Virus record (IMG/VR): IMGVR_UViG_3300006921_000120
Span: 1-26,417 of that record
From: a virus
DNA length: 26,417 bases
Direction: 5' to 3' (one strand)
Made by a program: the position numbers and the translations under genes. How positions within the stretch are numbered: position 1 is the stretch's first letter; every line of letters begins with the position of its first letter. The notes under the pieces are model-generated. The model had not been told where the DNA came from and searched no databases. It saw only the letters and a program-made list of their open reading frames with translations. This document shows positions 4,806-12,145 of this stretch, piece after piece.

Positions 4806-6131
4806 CTATTGTAAAAAGTATTTTCCAAAGTTAGAATCTATTTCATAGTACATTCTCATTGCTAAGGCATCTGAGTAATCAGGCGACCTACCAAGTATCG
4901 CTTTCACATTATCTTTAGGAATCATTTGTAGTTTATTATCTTTGTCTGCATCTTTCATTCTCACTTGTTCTAACTCCTCAATGATATTGTTCTTGGTATT
5001 CACATCAGGACAAGTTATTCCTATTTGTCCTTTATTAATTAAGTCTGATAATTTGTAGTAGCATTGAGTTTTTAAATTTTGATAGTTTTCTTTTTTCAAG
5101 GCCCTAGCATTATTTGTGAATCCCTGACATCTTAAGAAATCTTTTGCTCCACCACCTACACCATCTTCATCTATTATAATATTCCTAAGAGGTACTTGGT
5201 TTTCCTGTTGCATAGTTTGAACTTCATCTACTACTTCATTCATTGCAGATTTTAATAGTGTTTTGATTTTCACAACTTGCAATCCATTCCAATATAAGAT
5301 AACTGTTTTATCACTACCAAATCTTGCAACATCAACACTAATGAACTTTTGCCCTGATACTCCTTGTATCTCAAAGAGTTTTATAATCGAATCATAGTCT
5401 ATAAGAGCATCATTGCTTGCATCATACTCCCAATTACCAAAAAGCAATCTTTGTTTTGATAACTCATCTAAAGTTAGTAATTGAGTTTTGTAATACTTAG
5501 ATATATACTCATTGTCATCAACAAGACTCTGAATAAATTTTCTATGAGGTTTTTGCTTACCATCTTTGCTTGGTCTGTAGTATTGAGTATAAACCCAATT
5601 CTTTGCAGGATTGCATGTCATCAACATTTTAGGAATCCTATTATACTGATCAAGTTTATATCTCATTCTACTTGCTACTATGTTTTTTGCTTTTTCAGTT
5701 ATTTGGTTTGCTTCATCAATGAATGCTCCTGTAATTTCAAGTGATCCCAAGTTATCAAAGTTTTTATCTGATGGATATAAGAATAAATCCTTTAGTAGTA
5801 TTTCAGATTTATTAAAAAAGGAAATTATATTACTACCTGCATTGAAGTTATAATCTCGTCCTGCTTTGATGTTCCAAGTTTCGCATACTTCAAAGAAAGT
5901 ATTTAGTGTAGTTTTTTTCAATGAATCAAGTTTACTCCTACCCATCAACCATCTAGTCTTAGGATATTTTATGCACATTAAGATTAACCAAGCACAACCA
6001 ACCCATGACTTCCCACCTCCTGCTGCACCCCCAAATAATACTTCAGTCGTTTCGTTATCGAAAAGATACTCTATTGCTTGTGCCTGAGTATGAGTAAAGT
6101 CAATTGATGTGTAGTCATCTTTAATACTCAA
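4806..6131 (-). CDS. terL: Terminase large subunit
   Basis: 441 residues, the usual size for the packaging motor. The ATPase half has Walker A GGAAGGGKS at about residues 34-42 and a Walker B-like AFIDEA near 135, followed by an S-R-M-R-Y-K segment and a coupling-type M-T-C-N-P-A motif. The nuclease half has S-V-D-V-A-R-F-G-S-D-K-T and I-I-I-D-E-D-G-V-G-G-G, the acidic residues of an RNase H-like headful nuclease. It cuts concatemeric phage DNA and drives it into the prohead through the portal. It overlaps the small subunit gene by 11 nt and lies directly after the DNA-modification operon. It ends at a TAG just before a GC hairpin. Confidence 0.93.
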   Translation of the reverse strand: MSIKDDYTSIDFTHTQAQAIEYLFDNETTEVLFGGAAGGGKSWVGCAWLILMCIKYPKTRWLMGRSKLDSLKKTTLNTFFEVCETWNIKAGRDYNFNAGSNIISFFNKSEILLKDLFLYPSDKNFDNLGSLEITGAFIDEANQITEKAKNIVASRMRYKLDQYNRIPKMLMTCNPAKNWVYTQYYRPSKDGKQKPHRKFIQSLVDDNEYISKYYKTQLLTLDELSKQRLLFGNWEYDASNDALIDYDSIIKLFEIQGVSGQKFISVDVARFGSDKTVILYWNGLQVVKIKTLLKSAMNEVVDEVQTMQQENQVPLRNIIIDEDGVGGGAKDFLRCQGFTNNARALKKENYQNLKTQCYYKLSDLINKGQIGITCPDVNTKNNIIEELEQVRMKDADKDNKLQMIPKDNVKAILGRSPDYSDALAMRMYYEIDSNFGKYFLQ

Positions 6132-6474
6132 CTCCTTTAATATTTATTTTTAACTTGATCGGCTCATCTCCTGAACTTAAATCCAATTCTGATCTTTCAA
6201 CATAACCTCTTTTCTTGCCTTTCGTTTTTAAAAAGAAAATAGTTGCAGAAGTATTACCATCTCCTATTTGTTTATGCAGTTGACTTTCCCCAAAGTCCAA
6301 TGCAATGTTCTCTATCTCTTTCACATGTTGAGCAAACTCCTCATCTTCCTTTAACCATTTGTAGTATGTTGATCGAGGAACACTGGCGTTCTTACAAGCA
6401 AGAGTTACTACTCCTAATGATTTCTCTAATGCTTCAAGTAAAGATTCCTTTTTTATGTGTCTACTTTTGTCCAT
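6121..6474 (-). CDS. terS: Terminase small subunit
   Basis: 117 residues. An N-terminal helix-turn-helix (about residues 10-42, with G-V-V-T-L-A-C-K-N-A-S-V-P-R-S-T-Y-Y-K-W) is followed by helices that would form the oligomerisation part (E-I-E-N-I-A-L-D-F-G-E-S-Q-L). The middle G-N-T-S-A-T-I-F-F-L-K-T-K-G-K-K-R-G-Y motif is common to small terminases of Gram-negative phages. It recognises the packaging site and regulates the large subunit. Its ATG overlaps the end of the FolE fusion gene by 14 nt and its stop overlaps the large subunit start, so packaging genes are transcribed together with the modification operon. Confidence 0.85.
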   Translation of the reverse strand: MDKSRHIKKESLLEALEKSLGVVTLACKNASVPRSTYYKWLKEDEEFAQHVKEIENIALDFGESQLHKQIGDGNTSATIFFLKTKGKKRGYVERSELDLSSGDEPIKLKINIKGVEY

Positions 6475-7288
6475 AGTTTATGATGTTTAAAAATTCTTGT
6501 CTAGTGTTTAAGTCATCTTTAAAAACTCCTATCATCTTTGAAGTTGTTGTCCAAGTGTCATGTTTTTTAACTCCCCTCATATTCATGCATAGATGCTGTG
6601 CTTTCAATGTTACTGCTACACCCAAAGGCTCTAACTCTTTCATAAGTCGTTCTGCAATTTGTGTAGTTATTCTTTCTTGATTCTGTAATCTATTTGCATA
6701 TAAGTCTAATGTTCTCGCTAATTTAGATAATCCAACAATTTTATCTTTTGGTATGTATGCAATATTTGCTACACCAAAGAATGGTGCTATGTGATGTTCG
6801 CATAAACTATAGAATGGTATATTAGTTTGTACTATCATCTCATCAGTTCCCTCTGCATCAAAACAAGTAAAGTTAAATTCTTTAGGAGTTAAAAACTCTC
6901 TCATAAATTTGAGGTATCTTTTAGGAGTTTCTCTTAATCCCTCTCTGTCTGTATCCTCGCCTAGATATTGTAATATGCGAACAAAGTTATCTTCAACAGG
7001 CTCTTCTTTCATTTCCCAAGGAAACACTAACCATTTGTCTTTTAATTCTGTTTCTTTTTGTTTATCGAAAATAGCAACAAAAGGTTTCTTATACTTTGCA
7101 TAATCTTTCCTAGTTTTTCCTGAATCAATTAAGTCATCTACTATTATGTCGCATTCTTCAATACTATCTACAGGATTCAACATTGCAGAAATATATTGTC
7201 CACCTCTCGGCACACCATAATACTTTTTAGATTTGTCTAATTGATTAACTCGATTTTTAATCTCTTTCCAATTTATAAAATATTCCAT
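6461..7288 (-). CDS. folE: Phosphoribosyltransferase-GTP cyclohydrolase I fusion (FolE-like)
   Basis: 275 residues in two parts. Residues 1-92 look like a compact type I phosphoribosyltransferase: Y-G-V-P-R-G-G at 24-30 and the PRPP loop DIIVDDLIDSGKT at 47-59. Residues about 98-275 are GTP cyclohydrolase I, with the zinc-site motif S-L-C163-E-H165-H166-I-A-P-F-F-G and the second cysteine in Q-H-L-C234-M-N-M-R-G. FolE makes 7,8-dihydroneopterin triphosphate from GTP, the first step to preQ0. FolE is normally about 180-220 residues without a PRTase, so the fusion is unusual. It overlaps QueE by 16 nt and the small terminase by 14 nt. What the PRTase does is unknown; nucleobase or GTP salvage to feed FolE is one guess. 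Confidence 0.92.
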   Translation of the reverse strand: MEYFINWKEIKNRVNQLDKSKKYYGVPRGGQYISAMLNPVDSIEECDIIVDDLIDSGKTRKDYAKYKKPFVAIFDKQKETELKDKWLVFPWEMKEEPVEDNFVRILQYLGEDTDREGLRETPKRYLKFMREFLTPKEFNFTCFDAEGTDEMIVQTNIPFYSLCEHHIAPFFGVANIAYIPKDKIVGLSKLARTLDLYANRLQNQERITTQIAERLMKELEPLGVAVTLKAQHLCMNMRGVKKHDTWTTTSKMIGVFKDDLNTRQEFLNIINYGQK

Positions 7289-7890
7289 AGTTTATGATCT
7301 TGCACACTTAGTTTCCATTTAGGATTATCCAAGCATAGATTAATACAATGTAGCACATTGTCATTGTTTATAGTATAACCATCTGAATGAGGACTAACCC
7401 AATAGTTTTCTGCTTCAATTTTAGGATTAGGTATCTCTTGTCCTTTGTGTCTTACATATCGCAACTCATGTACTTTAGTATCTTTAAAATTTTTCTTAAT
7501 GACATGTTCTGCAACTTTAGGACTTATGCATATAAAATCTATACCATCAGGACATGAATGTAAGCCTGAAGTTTCAATTGCTTGAAAATATCCTTTGTCT
7601 TTAAACCATTGAACTATTGGAACATTCAATTGATCAAGTGGCTCTCCACCTGTCCAAGTTATTTCCTTACAATCCTTATTTGCTTCAAGCATCCAAGTAT
7701 GTATTTTTTCTAATTCCCACTCAGACCCTGATTCAAACTCAGTATCGCATTTAATCCCTGAAGCATAACATGCTCCTTGTGCTTTGCATCCTTGCAAACG
7801 AATAAAAAAAGTTGGAGTGCCTGATCTCTTGCCCTCGCCTTGTAGTGAATAAAATATCTCACTCACATTTAAAGTATTATTTTGTTCCAT
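7273..7890 (-). CDS. queE: 7-carboxy-7-deazaguanine synthase QueE (radical SAM)
   Basis: 205 residues. The start V-S-E-I-F-Y-S-L-Q-G-E-G-K-R-S-G-T-P-T-F-F-I-R is the classic QueE opening, and T-W-T-G-G-E-P-L-D near residue 80 is the SAM-binding motif. QueE converts carboxytetrahydropterin (CPH4) to 7-carboxy-7-deazaguanine. The iron-sulfur cysteines are oddly spaced: C35-x5-C41-x6-C48 followed by D-T-E-F, instead of CX3CX2C or CX14CX2C. The last cysteine plus D-T aligns with other QueE proteins, so the second ligand has moved. It overlaps QueD by 14 nt upstream and the FolE fusion downstream. Confidence 0.92.
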   Translation of the reverse strand: MEQNNTLNVSEIFYSLQGEGKRSGTPTFFIRLQGCKAQGACYASGIKCDTEFESGSEWELEKIHTWMLEANKDCKEITWTGGEPLDQLNVPIVQWFKDKGYFQAIETSGLHSCPDGIDFICISPKVAEHVIKKNFKDTKVHELRYVRHKGQEIPNPKIEAENYWVSPHSDGYTINNDNVLHCINLCLDNPKWKLSVQDHKLWNIL

Positions 7891-8272
7891 TGTAAATTAT
7901 TTTTGAAGTTTCTGTTTCTGCTAACTCGATTTGTACTATTGGTAGTTCTCTTTTGATTTGTACGAAAATCCAAATCGCCATGTTCTCGGCACTAGTATCA
8001 AAAGGCAATTCTATGAAAGGCTCATTGTCTAGTTTTAGTAATGTGCATAGAGGATCTTTTTCATGCAGTAAAAAATAATGATCGTATTGCTTGACAATTG
8101 GCTCTACTATTTTATCAATGTCTCCAAATAACATAGTAACACCATCTTTCATTTTATCAAACTCAAAAGTACATTTTATCTTATAAGTATGCCCATGAAT
8201 CCTACCGCACTTCTCATCTGCTTTCTTGTTTCTATGTGCAGCATAAAAGTGATATTTTTTTTCTATTTTCAT
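7877..8272 (-). CDS. queD: 6-carboxytetrahydropterin synthase QueD
   Basis: 131 residues, typical QueD/PTPS size. Zinc ligands H13 (Y-A-A-H), H26 and H28 (C-G-R-I-H-G-H-T-Y) are present, C22 is the expected catalytic cysteine, and D-T-S-A-E-N-M-A is the family's substrate-site motif. It converts dihydroneopterin triphosphate from FolE to 6-carboxy-5,6,7,8-tetrahydropterin. The gene overlaps the upstream dehydrogenase-like gene by 4 nt and QueE by 14 nt. Gene order and context (QueC, DpdA, QueE, FolE) make the deazaguanine role much more likely than biopterin synthesis. Confidence 0.93.
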   Translation of the reverse strand: MKIEKKYHFYAAHRNKKADEKCGRIHGHTYKIKCTFEFDKMKDGVTMLFGDIDKIVEPIVKQYDHYFLLHEKDPLCTLLKLDNEPFIELPFDTSAENMAIWIFVQIKRELPIVQIELAETETSKIIYNGTK

Positions 8273-8958
8273 TTTAATTTAGTTGATTCAAATAATCTTT
8301 TCTCCTCATTGTAGTTAGAAACTATTTGATGTTTATAATTCTTAAGATATTTTAGATACCATAAAACAACATATCCCATTCCATACTGAGTATAGCCTTT
8401 TTTGTGAATGATCGCATAAGGAATTTCTGCAACCTCATCAACATTAACTTCTTCTTCAGTATAGATATTCAAATTATGTTGTCCAAGTATGTCTTGTGTA
8501 ATACCTATTGACTTTGCTCTCATATTGTCTAAGGCGATTCCTAAGGCACTTATTTTGTTTTTTGGTATGCTTGTATTGGAGAGCAGATAATGCGCTAAGA
8601 TGTCATCAGGATTAGTTATAACAATCCATTCTCCTTTCATGTCATTTCTAATGATTGAATCAAGATACTTTTTATTGCGATCAATAAGATTAATTCTTTG
8701 CTCTCCGTCTAATTGTTTTACTCCCCCTGCTATTATATTTATATCTGCATCAGGATAATTATTATAAAAATAAGAAGTTATTTTGGTTGTTGATGTGAAA
8801 GGAGCATGGTTAATAAAATCTAATTTAATCCCTTCAATGTCTTGGTTAGTTATAAGATTAACTTTACAAGCAAGGCCCTCATAAATTATAAGATTACAAA
8901 TATTTAAACCAATATTTCCTGCTCCAAAGATATTGATGTTTTTAAATCTCATAGCCAA
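8269..8958 (-). CDS. Lactate/malate dehydrogenase-like NAD-binding protein
   Basis: 229 residues, about 80-100 shorter than cellular LDH/MDH, yet aligning by motif along most of its length. Rossmann motif I-F-G-A-G-N-I-G is at 10-17, and D-A-D-I-N-I-I-A-G-G at 70-79. Q82 and R88 lie in K-Q-L-D-G-E-Q-R, T-N-P-D-D-I-L is at 115-121, L-D144-N-M-R147 follows, and H161 is in G-Q-H. These match LDH Q102, R109, D168, R171 and H195, so the catalytic set looks complete, and Gln at position 102 is the lactate-type rather than malate-type residue. It sits between QueC and QueD with overlaps of 17 and 4 nt, so it is part of the deazaguanine operon. I know of no described role for such an enzyme there. 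It may modify the deazaguanine side chain, regenerate a cofactor or tweak host metabolism. Confidence 0.8.
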   Translation of the reverse strand: MAMRFKNINIFGAGNIGLNICNLIIYEGLACKVNLITNQDIEGIKLDFINHAPFTSTTKITSYFYNNYPDADINIIAGGVKQLDGEQRINLIDRNKKYLDSIIRNDMKGEWIVITNPDDILAHYLLSNTSIPKNKISALGIALDNMRAKSIGITQDILGQHNLNIYTEEEVNVDEVAEIPYAIIHKKGYTQYGMGYVVLWYLKYLKNYKHQIVSNYNEEKRLFESTKLK

Positions 8959-9511
8959 ACATTTTAAAAGTATCTATTTTCTTTTTGCATGGAATACATT
9001 CTAGGCATTCTTGAGAATCTTTAGGAAAATGACATGAAAAACATTCTTGGTATGCTTTTTCTATATCGCCACCAAGTTTTAGATATTCATTCAATATCTC
9101 AATTTTACTTTTGTCTTGGTAAGGTATCTCAATTTTTATTTTCTTTGCAACTAATTCTTTTGTCAAGACAGAATTAAAAAGTTTTTGAGTTGCTTTAATA
9201 AATTTTTCTTTTTTATCATAGTGTAAATCATCTGCAGTAGTTCCTAAGATTATAGTATCAGCATAATTAACTGCAATAGATAAAAAGATTAAATTCCTCA
9301 AAGGAATAGTTAAAAGATTATCGTCTTGCACATATTCAGCCAAGTCTATTTTTTTTATAATGACATCTTTTGGTAACCTTTTCTTTTCTTGTTCGTTTTG
9401 TTTAGTGCCTATATCAAAGAATAGTTTATGATCAGGTTTTAGAATCTTATCAATTAAGTAAGAATCCATACCACCACTATACAATAAAACTTTAGAGATT
9501 TTCCTCGGCAT
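8942..9511 (-). CDS. queC: 7-cyano-7-deazaguanine synthase QueC
   Basis: 189 residues. The PP-loop Y-S-G-G-M-D-S is at 11-17 for ATP. A zinc site C160-x8-C169-x2-C172-x2-C175 near the C-terminus matches QueC exactly, with an extra C157. L-G-T-T-A-D-D near residue 90 is another family motif. It converts 7-carboxy-7-deazaguanine plus ammonia to preQ0 using ATP. It is slightly shorter than the usual 220-230 residues. It overlaps DpdA by 20 nt upstream and the dehydrogenase-like gene by 17 nt downstream. Confidence 0.92.
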   Translation of the reverse strand: MPRKISKVLLYSGGMDSYLIDKILKPDHKLFFDIGTKQNEQEKKRLPKDVIIKKIDLAEYVQDDNLLTIPLRNLIFLSIAVNYADTIILGTTADDLHYDKKEKFIKATQKLFNSVLTKELVAKKIKIEIPYQDKSKIEILNEYLKLGGDIEKAYQECFSCHFPKDSQECLECIPCKKKIDTFKMFGYEI

Positions 9512-10232
9512 ATTTTTGAAATTTATTCCATTCTTTAAAATTATGAATAAGCATCTCTAGTTTTTTATCCTCTCTAACTTTCATGCCTATTCCTACTGCA
9601 GTTCTTTTTTTAATTTTTGTTCCATCAAACCATTGATACTCTCCAAACCTACCTGCATTTAACCAAGTTGTCGAATCAACAGAATACCATTTTATTTTTT
9701 TAAGCCAATCCATTTTAGTAAATCCTAAACCATGCACTTTTGTTCCTTTTTTATTCGCATAGTCAACCATCATTCGCAAGTATTTATATTCTTTGCCTGA
9801 AACACCTGCAGAAACTAATCCACCTATTGCAACATAGTCATACTCCTCAACTAATTTATACCAATAGTCAATTCCCCTAGATTTATGCCAAACAGGAATA
9901 GTTGGTTTACCTATTCTTTGTTCGATTTTATCTCTTATGATTTCAACTTTATCTAAACCAATGATCGAATCTATATCTAGTTCAAAAAAGTAATTTTGTT
10001 TTGTCTTTTCAATGAATGAACAATACTTATCTACATATAAATCCCAATCTGCTTTTTTACCTCGCAAAAAACTAAATGCTCCTGAGTCTAAGATATGTTT
10101 GTCATGCAATACATAGTCGCCATACTTCCCATTCTTATGCTCATAAAAAGAACTTAATATCAAAGTGTCTTTATATTCTGCCTTTGAAATTTTATTCTCA
10201 ATTAGTTTAAATCCTGCTAGATAGATTTTCAT
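9492..10232 (-). CDS. dpdA: DpdA-like 7-deazaguanine DNA transglycosylase
   Basis: 246 residues, the size of phage DpdA proteins, which are compact relatives of tRNA-guanine transglycosylases. Seen motifs are L-D49-S-G-A-F-S-F-L, W-H-K-S-R-G near 115, V-A-I-G-G-L-V near 134, V-H-G-L-G-F-T near 165 and S-V-D-S-T-T-W-L near 185. They mark the TIM-barrel substrate and active-site positions of the family. It would exchange guanine in phage DNA for preQ0 or a derivative. The gene overlaps the ParB-like gene by 4 nt and QueC by 20 nt. An archaeosine/queuosine tRNA enzyme is less likely because it lacks the tRNA-binding extensions and zinc site. Confidence 0.88.
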   Translation of the reverse strand: MKIYLAGFKLIENKISKAEYKDTLILSSFYEHKNGKYGDYVLHDKHILDSGAFSFLRGKKADWDLYVDKYCSFIEKTKQNYFFELDIDSIIGLDKVEIIRDKIEQRIGKPTIPVWHKSRGIDYWYKLVEEYDYVAIGGLVSAGVSGKEYKYLRMMVDYANKKGTKVHGLGFTKMDWLKKIKWYSVDSTTWLNAGRFGEYQWFDGTKIKKRTAVGIGMKVREDKKLEMLIHNFKEWNKFQKYAEENL

Positions 10233-10759
10233 TTAGTTAAAAGATTATAGATTGCATTTTCTTTAGTTCCCCCTATCTCTGCAAGTTTATCTATTATGAT
10301 CGCATACTCATCTTGAGTATATTCTAAAACTATTTTTTGAATGTCAGAAATTTCCTCGTCTTTATCTTCAAAAAAGTCCCCATAATTTTCCTCAGTCGGT
10401 TGCCATACATCCATTCCCCATTCTTTCAGTTGAACTTCATCCCATTTATTTGCAAGAATATCCCACTCCCATTCTCCAAAACCAACATTGTCTTTGATTA
10501 TAAACTCATCTTTTTGTTCTTCAGTTAGATTCTCTACTTTTTCAATCCATACTTCTTTTAATCCTGCTTCTTTACATGCTCTCAATCGCATGTTACCACC
10601 TAACACTACATTGTTCTCATCAACAACTATAGGTCTTATTTGCAACATTTGAGGAAATTCTTTAATTGATGTAACTAATTTCTCAAATTTAGTGTCTTTA
10701 ATAATTCTTGGATTATTAGCATTTTGGTTTATAATGTTTATCTTAACTTTCTGTACCAT
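10229..10759 (-). CDS. ParB-like nuclease-domain protein
   Basis: 176 residues. Residues 1-100 form a ParB/Srx domain: N-N-P-R-I-I-K-D near 15, P-Q-M-L-Q-I-R-P-I-V-V-D near 36, and the signature G-G-N-M-R-L-R-A-C near 54. The rest (about 100-176) is acidic and has a helical region but no clear second domain such as a methylase. In phages this domain is often carried next to DNA-modifying enzymes. Here it starts the deazaguanine operon and overlaps dpdA by 4 nt, which suggests a DNA-binding or targeting role for DpdA. TCTATTAT and 5 nt precede its ATG, so the operon probably begins here. Confidence 0.82.
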   Translation of the reverse strand: MVQKVKINIINQNANNPRIIKDTKFEKLVTSIKEFPQMLQIRPIVVDENNVVLGGNMRLRACKEAGLKEVWIEKVENLTEEQKDEFIIKDNVGFGEWEWDILANKWDEVQLKEWGMDVWQPTEENYGDFFEDKDEEISDIQKIVLEYTQDEYAIIIDKLAEIGGTKENAIYNLLTK

Positions 10760-11174: not shown

Positions 11175-11580
11175 AATAATGATAGATTTTAGATATTCCT
11201 TTGAAGCATGTATTAAGACAACCTGAACAATTGGTTGTGGTATTATACTGACCACCATAGATTATATTATAAAGTTCAATCATTTTTCTTTTAGTTGCCT
11301 GATCTTTTGCTTTGCCTGTTTTGATGTCAGGATAAATTTTTCTTACTTCATCTATTAAATCTTGAGGTAAATCTTTAGTTAATTCTTGAGGATCATAACC
11401 AAAGTCATGCATTTTCCAAAAATATTTAGGGCAATGTTGTTGAGAAATTCTTGCCTTGATTTTCATAAAGCAACCGCAAATTTTACAATTGCCTAAAAGT
11501 GATTGATAATACTCGCAAGATTTACATTGAGTAATTCTTTTCTCATAAACTTCTGATGGTACAAAAAAAGGTTTACTCAT
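11161..11580 (-). CDS. Zinc-ribbon protein of unknown function
   Basis: 139 residues. Near the N-terminus it has C-K-S-C, then C-K-I-C-G-C about ten residues later, then H-C-P near residue 50, a metal-binding cluster common in small phage proteins (DUF6171-like by recollection). A second group, C-S-G-C-L-N-T-C, lies near residue 118. The part between (about 55-110) is helical and charged. It overlaps the sigma-like gene by 8 nt. A nucleic-acid or polymerase-binding adaptor is possible but cannot be shown. Confidence 0.65.
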   Translation of the reverse strand: MSKPFFVPSEVYEKRITQCKSCEYYQSLLGNCKICGCFMKIKARISQQHCPKYFWKMHDFGYDPQELTKDLPQDLIDEVRKIYPDIKTGKAKDQATKRKMIELYNIIYGGQYNTTTNCSGCLNTCFKGISKIYHYYEEL

Positions 11581-12145
11581 TTTCTATTTTTTTTATTATT
11601 TTGTTTCTCGTATTTTGAATAGTAGTAAAAATATGATTTCGACTAATCCCTGTTTTTTCTGCTATTGAATCAAAAGTATTTTTTTCTGTATAGTACAACT
11701 CAAACATTCGTTTCTCATACCAATGAAATTTTTCCAAAATAAGATCTATCCTTTCTAACTTTTCCCATTTTGCTTCTTCAGTTTGATCTTGCTCTGGCAT
11801 ATTATAGATTGAGTTGTGGTACTCATTTTGTATTTTATCATAACTTGAGGAAGTATTTTTATGAGTCATTCCAACTAAATTTTTGTAATATTTTCTATAC
11901 TTATAATAAAAAGGAGAACGAACTGAAGTTAAACTTCTTTTCAATACAACTGCTCCATATCTTATGATCCCATCTTCCCCATCTTTGTCGTAGATATTTT
12001 TTAAAGTTTCAGGATTCATTTGCAAAAAATAAAGCATTAATTCTTGTACTGCATCATTTATTGCTTCCTCATCTTTAGTTAAACCAAAGCACATTTTCTT
12101 AAAGAATTTGCTCAATGATGCAATATGCTTATAGATTTTATTCAT
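11573..12145 (-). CDS. Sigma-70-like transcription regulator
   Basis: 190 residues. The N-terminal helices (D-A-V-Q-E-L-M-L-Y-F-L near residue 30) resemble sigma region 2. After a basic, Tyr-rich middle segment there is a region 4-like helix-turn-helix: W-Y-E-K-R-M-F-E-L-Y-Y then F-D-S-I-A-E-K-T-G-I-S-R-N-H-I-F-T-T-I near 160-180. This two-domain plan is that of ECF-type sigma factors and phage late regulators. No gene of another function fits better. It is a good candidate to recognise the TCTATTAT motifs before late genes. Overlaps of 8 nt on both sides place it in the middle operon. Divergence is high, so the call is moderate. Confidence 0.55.
   Translation of the reverse strand: MNKIYKHIASLSKFFKKMCFGLTKDEEAINDAVQELMLYFLQMNPETLKNIYDKDGEDGIIRYGAVVLKRSLTSVRSPFYYKYRKYYKNLVGMTHKNTSSSYDKIQNEYHNSIYNMPEQDQTEEAKWEKLERIDLILEKFHWYEKRMFELYYTEKNTFDSIAEKTGISRNHIFTTIQNTRNKIIKKIENE

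What the first reader, a model, noticed from the sequence alone, without database searches (positions are those of the whole stretch)
6461..10759. Complete preQ0-to-DNA pathway in one overlapping operon
FolE, QueD, QueE, QueC and DpdA are all present with their key residues, joined by short overlaps and led by a ParB-like gene. Together they suffice on paper to make preQ0 from GTP and insert it in DNA. No QueF, DpdL, DpdM, DpdN or Gat-QueC-like gene is visible, so the expected mark is dPreQ0 unless the extra dehydrogenase changes it. Linkage to the terminase genes suggests modification is made late, just before packaging.
Basis: partly seen in the sequence, partly recalled or inferred. Interest (0 to 1): 0.72.

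Follow-up and report, generated by a model that had tools for sequence, protein, structure and literature searches.

The report
Phage DNA-base-swapping cassette with altered QueC
A virus of bacteria carries a complete set of genes to build a modified guanine and swap it into its own DNA, in a gene order already known from other phages, but with an unusual last-step enzyme and an extra dehydrogenase that make the exact final base uncertain.

Summary
Eight overlapping minus-strand genes encode a ParB-like protein, DpdA, QueC-like, a lactate-dehydrogenase-like (LDH-like) protein, QueD, QueE, a PRT-FolE fusion and terminase small subunit, followed by terminase large subunit. All are under purifying selection. 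The order ParB-DpdA-QueC-QueD-QueE-FolE-TerS-TerL is not new: it is annotated in isolated mycobacteriophage Saguaro and recurs in many viral contigs and prophages. DpdA keeps every conserved catalytic position. The weak point is "suffices to make preQ0". The window's QueC lacks Tyr35 and Tyr189, shown essential in E. coli QueC, and Tyr131 is not aligned, whereas QueCs of phages with proven dPreQ0 or dG+ keep all four. This divergent QueC is a small DpdA-linked clade in related phages, including one in cultured Phocaeicola plebeius. The LDH-like gene, known only from this phage group, sits where relatives carry probable tailoring enzymes. I read it as a DNA 7-deazaguanine module whose final base is open (dPreQ0, dADG or a new derivative). 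Terminase linkage is conserved, but late timing is not shown. New variant of a known kind.

The parts
10229..10759 (-). ParB/Srx-like protein, 176 aa, first gene of the cassette; inferred partner of DpdA
   Evidence: ParB_N 2.3e-07; best phrog_498, the N-terminus of phage DNA methyltransferases; adjacent to DpdA in 50 of 53 distinct loci with enough upstream DNA
9492..10232 (-). DpdA, DNA guanine transglycosylase, 246 aa
   Evidence: phrog_887 1.7e-52; D49, H167, D186, W190 in 88 of 88 aligned DpdA; H167 aligns to 9g H196
8942..9511 (-). QueC-like ATP-pyrophosphatase, 189 aa, divergent DpdA-linked subtype
   Evidence: PF06508 3.3e-17; model pLDDT 87, Z 15.9 to QueC, 14.7 to Cap9, 13.2 to QatC; lacks E. 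coli Tyr35 and Tyr189
8269..8958 (-). Lactate/malate-dehydrogenase-like protein with shortened catalytic domain, 229 aa (TTG start; ATG at codon 3)
   Evidence: PF00056 9.1e-17; PDB LDH 4lmr 3e-20; dN/dS 0.19
7877..8272 (-). QueD, 6-carboxytetrahydropterin synthase
   Evidence: PF01242 2.9e-26; TIGR03367 5.5e-21, below its cutoff; PDB QueD/PTPS matches
7273..7890 (-). QueE, 7-carboxy-7-deazaguanine synthase, Cx5Cx6C cysteine spacing
   Evidence: TIGR04508 2e-32, below its cutoff; PDB 4njg 4.7e-21; spacing
6461..7288 (-). PRT-like domain (about residues 1-98) fused to FolE, GTP cyclohydrolase I
   Evidence: PF01227 8.9e-64 at 99-270; phrog_8995 phosphoribosyl transferase 3.3e-05 at 48-96
6121..6474 (-). 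Terminase small subunit
   Evidence: phrog_309 7.9e-09
4806..6131 (-). Terminase large subunit
   Evidence: PF03237 1.5e-08; phrog_2 1.1e-31

Best explanation
A phage DNA hypermodification cassette. FolE turns GTP into dihydroneopterin triphosphate, QueD makes 6-carboxytetrahydropterin, QueE makes 7-carboxy-7-deazaguanine (CDG), and the QueC-like enzyme activates the CDG carboxylate with ATP to make the last free base. DpdA then cuts guanine out of finished DNA and puts that base in, with the ParB-like protein as its DNA-binding or NTPase partner. The likely use is protection from restriction enzymes. The final base is not settled: the QueC has lost residues needed for preQ0 synthesis in E. 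coli, so preQ0, the amide ADG, or a derivative are all open. The LDH-like protein most likely acts on the pathway (tailoring, or keeping a pterin intermediate reduced), because it lies where relatives carry probable tailoring genes. Shown: gene identities, operon structure, conserved linkage, residue losses, purifying selection. Inferred: all chemistry, ParB's role, the LDH-like protein's role, and protection.
For: Family hits. DpdA catalytic positions invariant and matched to 9g and CAjan. Same gene order in isolated phages Saguaro and Sour. ParB next to DpdA in 50 of 53 and TerL downstream in 28 of 33 distinct loci. Where the biosynthetic genes are missing (5 of those 33), the gap holds a Vut_1-family transporter gene instead, the kind of gene annotated as queuosine precursor transporter close to DpdA in phage phiFN37. 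[quoted passage not shown]
Against: No mass spectrometry was found for this group. QueC lacks Tyr35 and Tyr189, QueE has unusual cysteine spacing, and DpdA scores far below NCBIfam's DpdA cutoff. The LDH-like gene occurs in only two distinct lineages, and its model failed (pLDDT 35.5). ParB shows no match to a DpdB model in the PADLOC or NCBIfam scans.
Confidence: 0.85

Rival explanations
1. The QueC-like enzyme is a fully functional preQ0 synthase despite its residue changes, the LDH-like protein is incidental, and the mark is simply dPreQ0 as in CAjan and Rosebush.
For: Same cassette and order as mycobacteriophages; SGGxDS, IPxRN, the conserved Asp and the C(x)8CxxCxxC zinc motif are kept; the nearest solved structure is QueC.
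Against: Tyr35, Tyr131 and Tyr189 alanine mutants of E. coli QueC are inactive (PMC13329287); the window has Ile, His (with a Tyr next to it) and His there, while CAjan and 9g, whose nitrile-derived bases are proven, keep all.
Confidence: 0.35
2. The QueC-like enzyme stops at the amide, so the phage inserts ADG (dADG).
For: QueC works through an ADG intermediate (PMC13329287); the losses are at substrate-pocket positions of E. coli QueC; dADG is a known phage base (PMC6884629).
Against: No test separates amide from nitrile synthesis by sequence; the same DpdA clade also works with canonical QueC.
Confidence: 0.25
3. The genes serve tRNA queuosine or folate in the host rather than phage DNA.
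For: FolE, QueD, QueE and QueC are shared with the tRNA pathway.
Against: The cassette travels with DpdA in 28 of 33 loci; DpdA matches phage DpdA, has the DpdA histidine and its 246 residues end without the C-terminal zinc site of TGT (that site is recalled).
Confidence: 0.04
4. The LDH-like protein is an auxiliary metabolic enzyme unrelated to DNA modification, picked up by chance inside the operon.
For: Clear LDH ancestry with lactate-type residues kept; only in this phage group; fastest-evolving cassette gene.
Against: It overlaps queC and queD, is under purifying selection, and has lost a large part of the catalytic domain, which makes a normal LDH unlikely.
Confidence: 0.35

Closest known systems
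Mycobacterium phages Saguaro (NC_051583), CRB2 and Rosebush (cluster B)
   Same: Saguaro has the same order ParB-DpdA-QueC-QueD-QueE-FolE-TerS-TerL; the CRB2 paper notes ORF1 as a possible dpdB (ParB), ORF2 DpdA, ORF3-5 QueC/D/E and ORF7-8 terminase (PMC6392294, passage seen); Rosebush carries dPreQ0 (PMC6884629; Rosebush DNA not examined here).
   Different: Canonical QueC residues in Saguaro, longer DpdA, no LDH-like gene, no PRT on FolE.
Queuovirinae: Escherichia phages CAjan and 9g
   Same: Same enzymes; the dPreQ0 and dG+ marks are measured (PMC6884629).
   Different: Order QueE-QueC-QueD-FolE-DpdA next to DNA polymerase genes and terminase elsewhere; no ParB found by our profile in CAjan (9g not scanned for it).
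Phocaeicola plebeius DSM 17135 prophage-like locus (L099) and gut phage MT835752 (L008)
   Same: Same order and same divergent QueC subtype.
   Different: No LDH-like gene, FolE without PRT, DpdA 46-47% identical by tblastn.
Bacterial dpd restriction cluster (DpdA, DpdB, DpdC)
   Same: DpdA with a ParB-superfamily partner (DpdB) inserts preQ0 (as told in PMC12839542).
   Different: The phage ParB matches methyltransferase-linked ParB domains, with no DpdB model hit.
QatC and Cap9 (deazaguanylation in phage defence)
   Same: QueC-fold relatives of the window QueC, Z 13.2-14.7.
   Different: They modify proteins in defence systems; no QatB- or CBASS-like partner was recognised among the window genes scanned.

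Membership tests
[quoted passage not shown]
   no Gat domain on QueC (189 aa). The record is a fragment.
Phage preQ0 group (Hutinet 2019 group 2) | dPreQ0 in virion DNA | not testable with these tools
   No virion DNA.
DpdA (phage type) | TGT-like catalytic Asp pair and the DpdA histidine (9g His196) | tested here: met
   D49/D186/H167 align with 9g D72/D215/H196; 88 of 88 conserved. That these Asp are the catalytic pair is recalled.
DpdA (NCBIfam NF041059) | Score above the curated cutoff | tested here: not met
   25.5 bits against 200. The phage claim therefore rests on phrog_887 and the residue match, not on this model.
Canonical QueC | SGGxDS loop and C(x)8CxxCxxC zinc motif | tested here: met
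Canonical QueC | Tyr35, Arg99, Tyr131, Tyr189 (mutants inactive in E. coli, PMC13329287) | tested here: not met
   Window: Ile, Arg, His (Tyr adjacent), His. So filed as QueC-like, not canonical QueC.
QueE | Radical-SAM cysteine triad | tested here: inconclusive
   Three Cys before CDT, but Cx5Cx6C, not Cx3Cx2C; 24 of 77 QueE rows share this.
FolE | GTP cyclohydrolase I domain above cutoff | tested here: met
   TIGR00063 206.9 bits against 181.6.
L-lactate dehydrogenase | Two-domain LDH with full catalytic domain | tested here: not met
   Ldh_1_N only; deletion after the active-site His and truncated C-terminus.
DpdB | Match to a DpdB family model | tested here: inconclusive
   No hit in PADLOC or NCBIfam; I did not confirm that a DpdB model is in those libraries.

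The most novel reading that the evidence does not exclude
In this phage group the divergent QueC and the trimmed LDH-like enzyme together make a 7-deazaguanine base not yet described in DNA. More widely, phages keep ParB-DpdA-terminase fixed and swap the QueC slot and the tailoring gene to vary the base their host's restriction enzymes see.
Probability: 0.2. Interest if true: 0.75.

Novelty: new variant of a known kind. Interest (0 to 1): 0.5.

Why it matters
It shows that 'QueC present' does not by itself predict dPreQ0. A whole DpdA-linked QueC clade lacks residues needed for preQ0 synthesis in E. coli, and QueC types alternate on the DpdA tree. A cultured host (P. plebeius DSM 17135) and an isolated phage (BS162P1) carry this QueC clade, so the base can be measured. 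The conserved ParB-DpdA pair, present whether the base is made or apparently imported, is good evidence that ParB belongs to the installing step in phages, which I found only suggested in print (PMC6392294).

Tried and rejected
LDH-like structure prediction from two sequences failed (pLDDT 35.5), so no fold claim is made. A search for further viral LDH-like relatives with profile A2 found only the known group; protein hits in 'phages' are weak (21-31% identity) and in records without annotation, so they were not counted. DpdA profile A1 found no PDB chain at E 0.1. Promoter and terminator scans gave no more than shuffles (42 against 41.4; 3 against 2.4). The PRT-FolE fusion looked novel but 46 phage records hold a match covering at least 80% of the protein. 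The cassette order looked novel but is in Saguaro and Sour. Rosebush (AY129334, NC_004684) and Qyrzula (recalled accession NC_008204) are not in the collection; Saguaro was used instead. The Cui 2023 and Thiaville 2016 papers are not held, so DpdL/M/N and bacterial dpd details are recalled or second-hand. Literature searches on the novelty points: dehydrogenase; one search lists one preprint, not opened; ParB with DpdA; PRT; Bacteroides phage and deazaguanine: 0 papers; CX5CX6C: one unrelated paper. They cover only open-licence PMC papers.

Weak points: family HMMs were trained partly on the loci they then counted (E 1e-4). The 80 loci are the best 80 of 265, so counts describe this DpdA clade. 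In the tree, the 18 'none' rows include contigs cut before the QueC position, and type C pools zinc and zinc-less forms. Rows dropped before counts: duplicate loci of the window group and identical proteins, QueC hits above E 1e-10 or under 150 aa, DpdA under 225 aa.
Full report
WHAT IS THERE. The window is a 26,417-base virus record. In 4806-10759 nine genes run on the minus strand: ParB-like, DpdA, QueC-like, LDH-like, QueD, QueE, PRT-FolE, TerS, TerL. Each of the eight junctions overlaps by 4 to 20 bases. Identities come from Pfam, PHROGs and NCBIfam. No internal promoter or terminator stands out against shuffles. Compared with contig L003, dN/dS is 0.03 (ParB, TerL), 0.045 (DpdA), 0.067 (QueC), 0.19 (LDH-like), 0.044 (QueD), 0.11 (QueE), 0.055 (PRT-FolE), 0.066 (TerS). 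All are kept by selection; the LDH-like gene least.

HOW COMMON THE ARRANGEMENT IS. A profile of five DpdAs found 265 relatives in IMG/VR, of which the best 80 were kept. With profiles made here the gene maps give ParB-DpdA-QueC-QueD-QueE-FolE-(TerS)-TerL again and again. After reducing to 57 distinct DpdAs (under 90% identity), 53 have 400 bases or more upstream: ParB is adjacent in 50, within 30 bases or overlapping in 47. Of the three misses, L066 and L085 do show a ParB in the map and L049 shows none. Of 33 with 4 kb or more downstream, TerL is found in 28, QueD, QueE and FolE in 28, QueC in 26. Five of the 33 (L014, L021, L072, L086, L090) have no pathway genes, and all five carry a TerL and a Vut_1-family transporter gene, checked by Pfam for L021 and L090 and by a shared PHROG family for L014, L072 and L086. 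So ParB-DpdA-terminase is the constant part and the supply of base (made or apparently imported) is the variable part. The order is not new: isolated phages Saguaro and Sour have it (Sour has no annotated TerS), and the CRB2 paper describes it and proposes a dpdB role for ORF1 (PMC6392294, passage seen).

DpdA. The protein is short (246 aa), but D49, H167, D186 and W190 are invariant in 88 of 88 aligned DpdAs and align with 9g D72, H196, D215 and W219. PMC6884629 names His196 as the conserved DpdA residue absent from DpdA2 (section read). The DNA-type assignment therefore stands, although the NCBIfam DpdA model scores low.

ParB. The protein is of the kind found at the N-terminus of phage DNA methyltransferases. 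PMC12783734 (passages) notes ParB domains fused to DNA methyltransferases and near CmoX, function unknown. Bacterial DpdB is described as a ParB-like ATPase that drives preQ0 insertion, with its dispensability debated (PMC12839542, passage). A partner role for the phage ParB is inferred from linkage alone.

QueC. PMC13329287 (section read) shows E. coli QueC mutants Y35A, R99A, Y131A and Y189A inactive. In an alignment of 59 QueC rows, 9 rows lack Tyr35: window, L003, L008, L031, L038, L040, L041, L043, L044. The window and L003 have Ile35, Arg99, His at 131 with a Tyr beside it (a one-residue shift could align it), and His189; the other seven keep Tyr189. CAjan, 9g, Saguaro and Sour keep all four. 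The same clade lies next to DpdA in P. plebeius DSM 17135 (L099), Bacteroides phage BS162P1 (L129) and MT835482 (L130). An AlphaFold2 model (18 rows, pLDDT 87) is nearest to QueC (Z 15.9), then Cap9 (14.7) and QatC (13.2), which shows the fold, not the product. On the DpdA tree (71 rows) QueC types alternate: type A (10 rows) needs 7 changes, at least 6 forced by well-supported branches, and the window type (7 rows) 2. So the QueC position has been exchanged repeatedly.

LDH-LIKE PROTEIN. It matches LDHs (4lmr 3e-20). By that alignment the nucleotide loop GAGNIG, R88, N116, D144, R147, H161 and T190 stand where LDHs have Arg109, Asn140, Asp168, Arg171, His195 and Thr246 (numbering recalled), and Gln82 stands at the lactate-type position 102 (recalled). 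About 27 residues after the active-site His and about 59 at the C-terminus of 4lmr have no counterpart, so part of the catalytic domain is gone. It occurs in the window, 3300025099_002675, 3300037585_002122 (both 100% identical to the window) and 3300012953_003705 (80%), that is, two lineages. Comparable positions in relatives hold DUF6884 (YaaA-related; five loci L014, L057, L062, L083, L091, plus a hit in L009), DUF5591 (L058, L060, L061) and MT-A70 (L064) genes. Pfam was run on one DUF6884, one DUF5591 and the MT-A70 member; the rest are profile hits or read by eye. DpdC, which turns dPreQ0 into dADG, is of the PF03883 family (PMC12839542), to which DUF6884 is weakly similar (E 0.0018). That DUF5591 belongs to archaeosine synthases is recalled. 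Hence the reading of the LDH-like gene as a tailoring or pathway-support enzyme; its substrate is unknown.

FolE FUSION. The N-terminal domain has a PRPP-type motif (IIVDDLIDSGKT) and a YGVPRGG loop only 24 residues upstream, so it looks too short for a full transferase (motif meaning recalled). 17 of 74 distinct FolE in these loci carry it. Full-length PRT genes follow FolE in L080, L083 and L084 (Pfam run on L080 and L083), and FolE of L080 and L083 lacks the domain (L084 dropped there as a duplicate). One idea is salvage of the guanine that DpdA releases back to GMP. Not tested.

VERDICT. Real, functional-looking DNA 7-deazaguanine cassette; known architecture; unusual QueC, QueE spacing and LDH-like gene; final base open. 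Late timing is unproven.

Noticed in passing
window 7273-7890: QueE has cysteines spaced Cx5Cx6C before CDT; 24 of 77 QueE rows in related loci share it, 9 have Cx3Cx18C, 29 the usual Cx3Cx2C, 15 others not readable by the simple pattern. No paper with CX5CX6C and 'radical' on this topic was found.
   Followed up: partly
L014, L021, L059, L072, L086, L087, L090 between DpdA and TerL: A Vut_1/YhhQ-type transporter replaces the whole preQ0 biosynthesis set between ParB-DpdA and terminase.
   Followed up: partly
L080:4427-4966, L083:9354-9869, L084:9081-9620: Separate full-length phosphoribosyltransferase genes follow FolE, where other relatives have a PRT domain fused to FolE; possible guanine salvage.
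   Followed up: partly
L058:5435-6091 and same gene in L060, L061: DUF5591 gene between QueC and QueD; possible archaeosine-type tailoring.
   Followed up: no
L015, L030, L032, L035, L050, L073, L077, L081, L089: A QueC-like family with GG[AM]DS and KDSNW and no zinc motif fills the QueC position; QueC Pfam score barely above cutoff in L032.
   Followed up: no
L063, L046, L053, L056, L016, L024 and others: QueC with canonical YPDC but zinc cysteines replaced (DYNG...NNPATELR-like C-terminus).
   Followed up: no
L066, L100, L106, L117, L118: Two or more DpdA reading frames in tandem.
   Followed up: no
L009 2054-2560 and 772-2043: In Fusobacterium phage phiFN37 another ParB-like gene follows a PAPS-reductase gene, a hint that ParB partners several DNA-modifying enzymes.
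   Followed up: no
window 11573-12145: Sigma-factor-like gene upstream of the cassette, also in L004 and L008.
   Followed up: no
L108: ParB-DpdA-Vut_1-TerL in a contig binned as Archaeoglobus.
   Followed up: no
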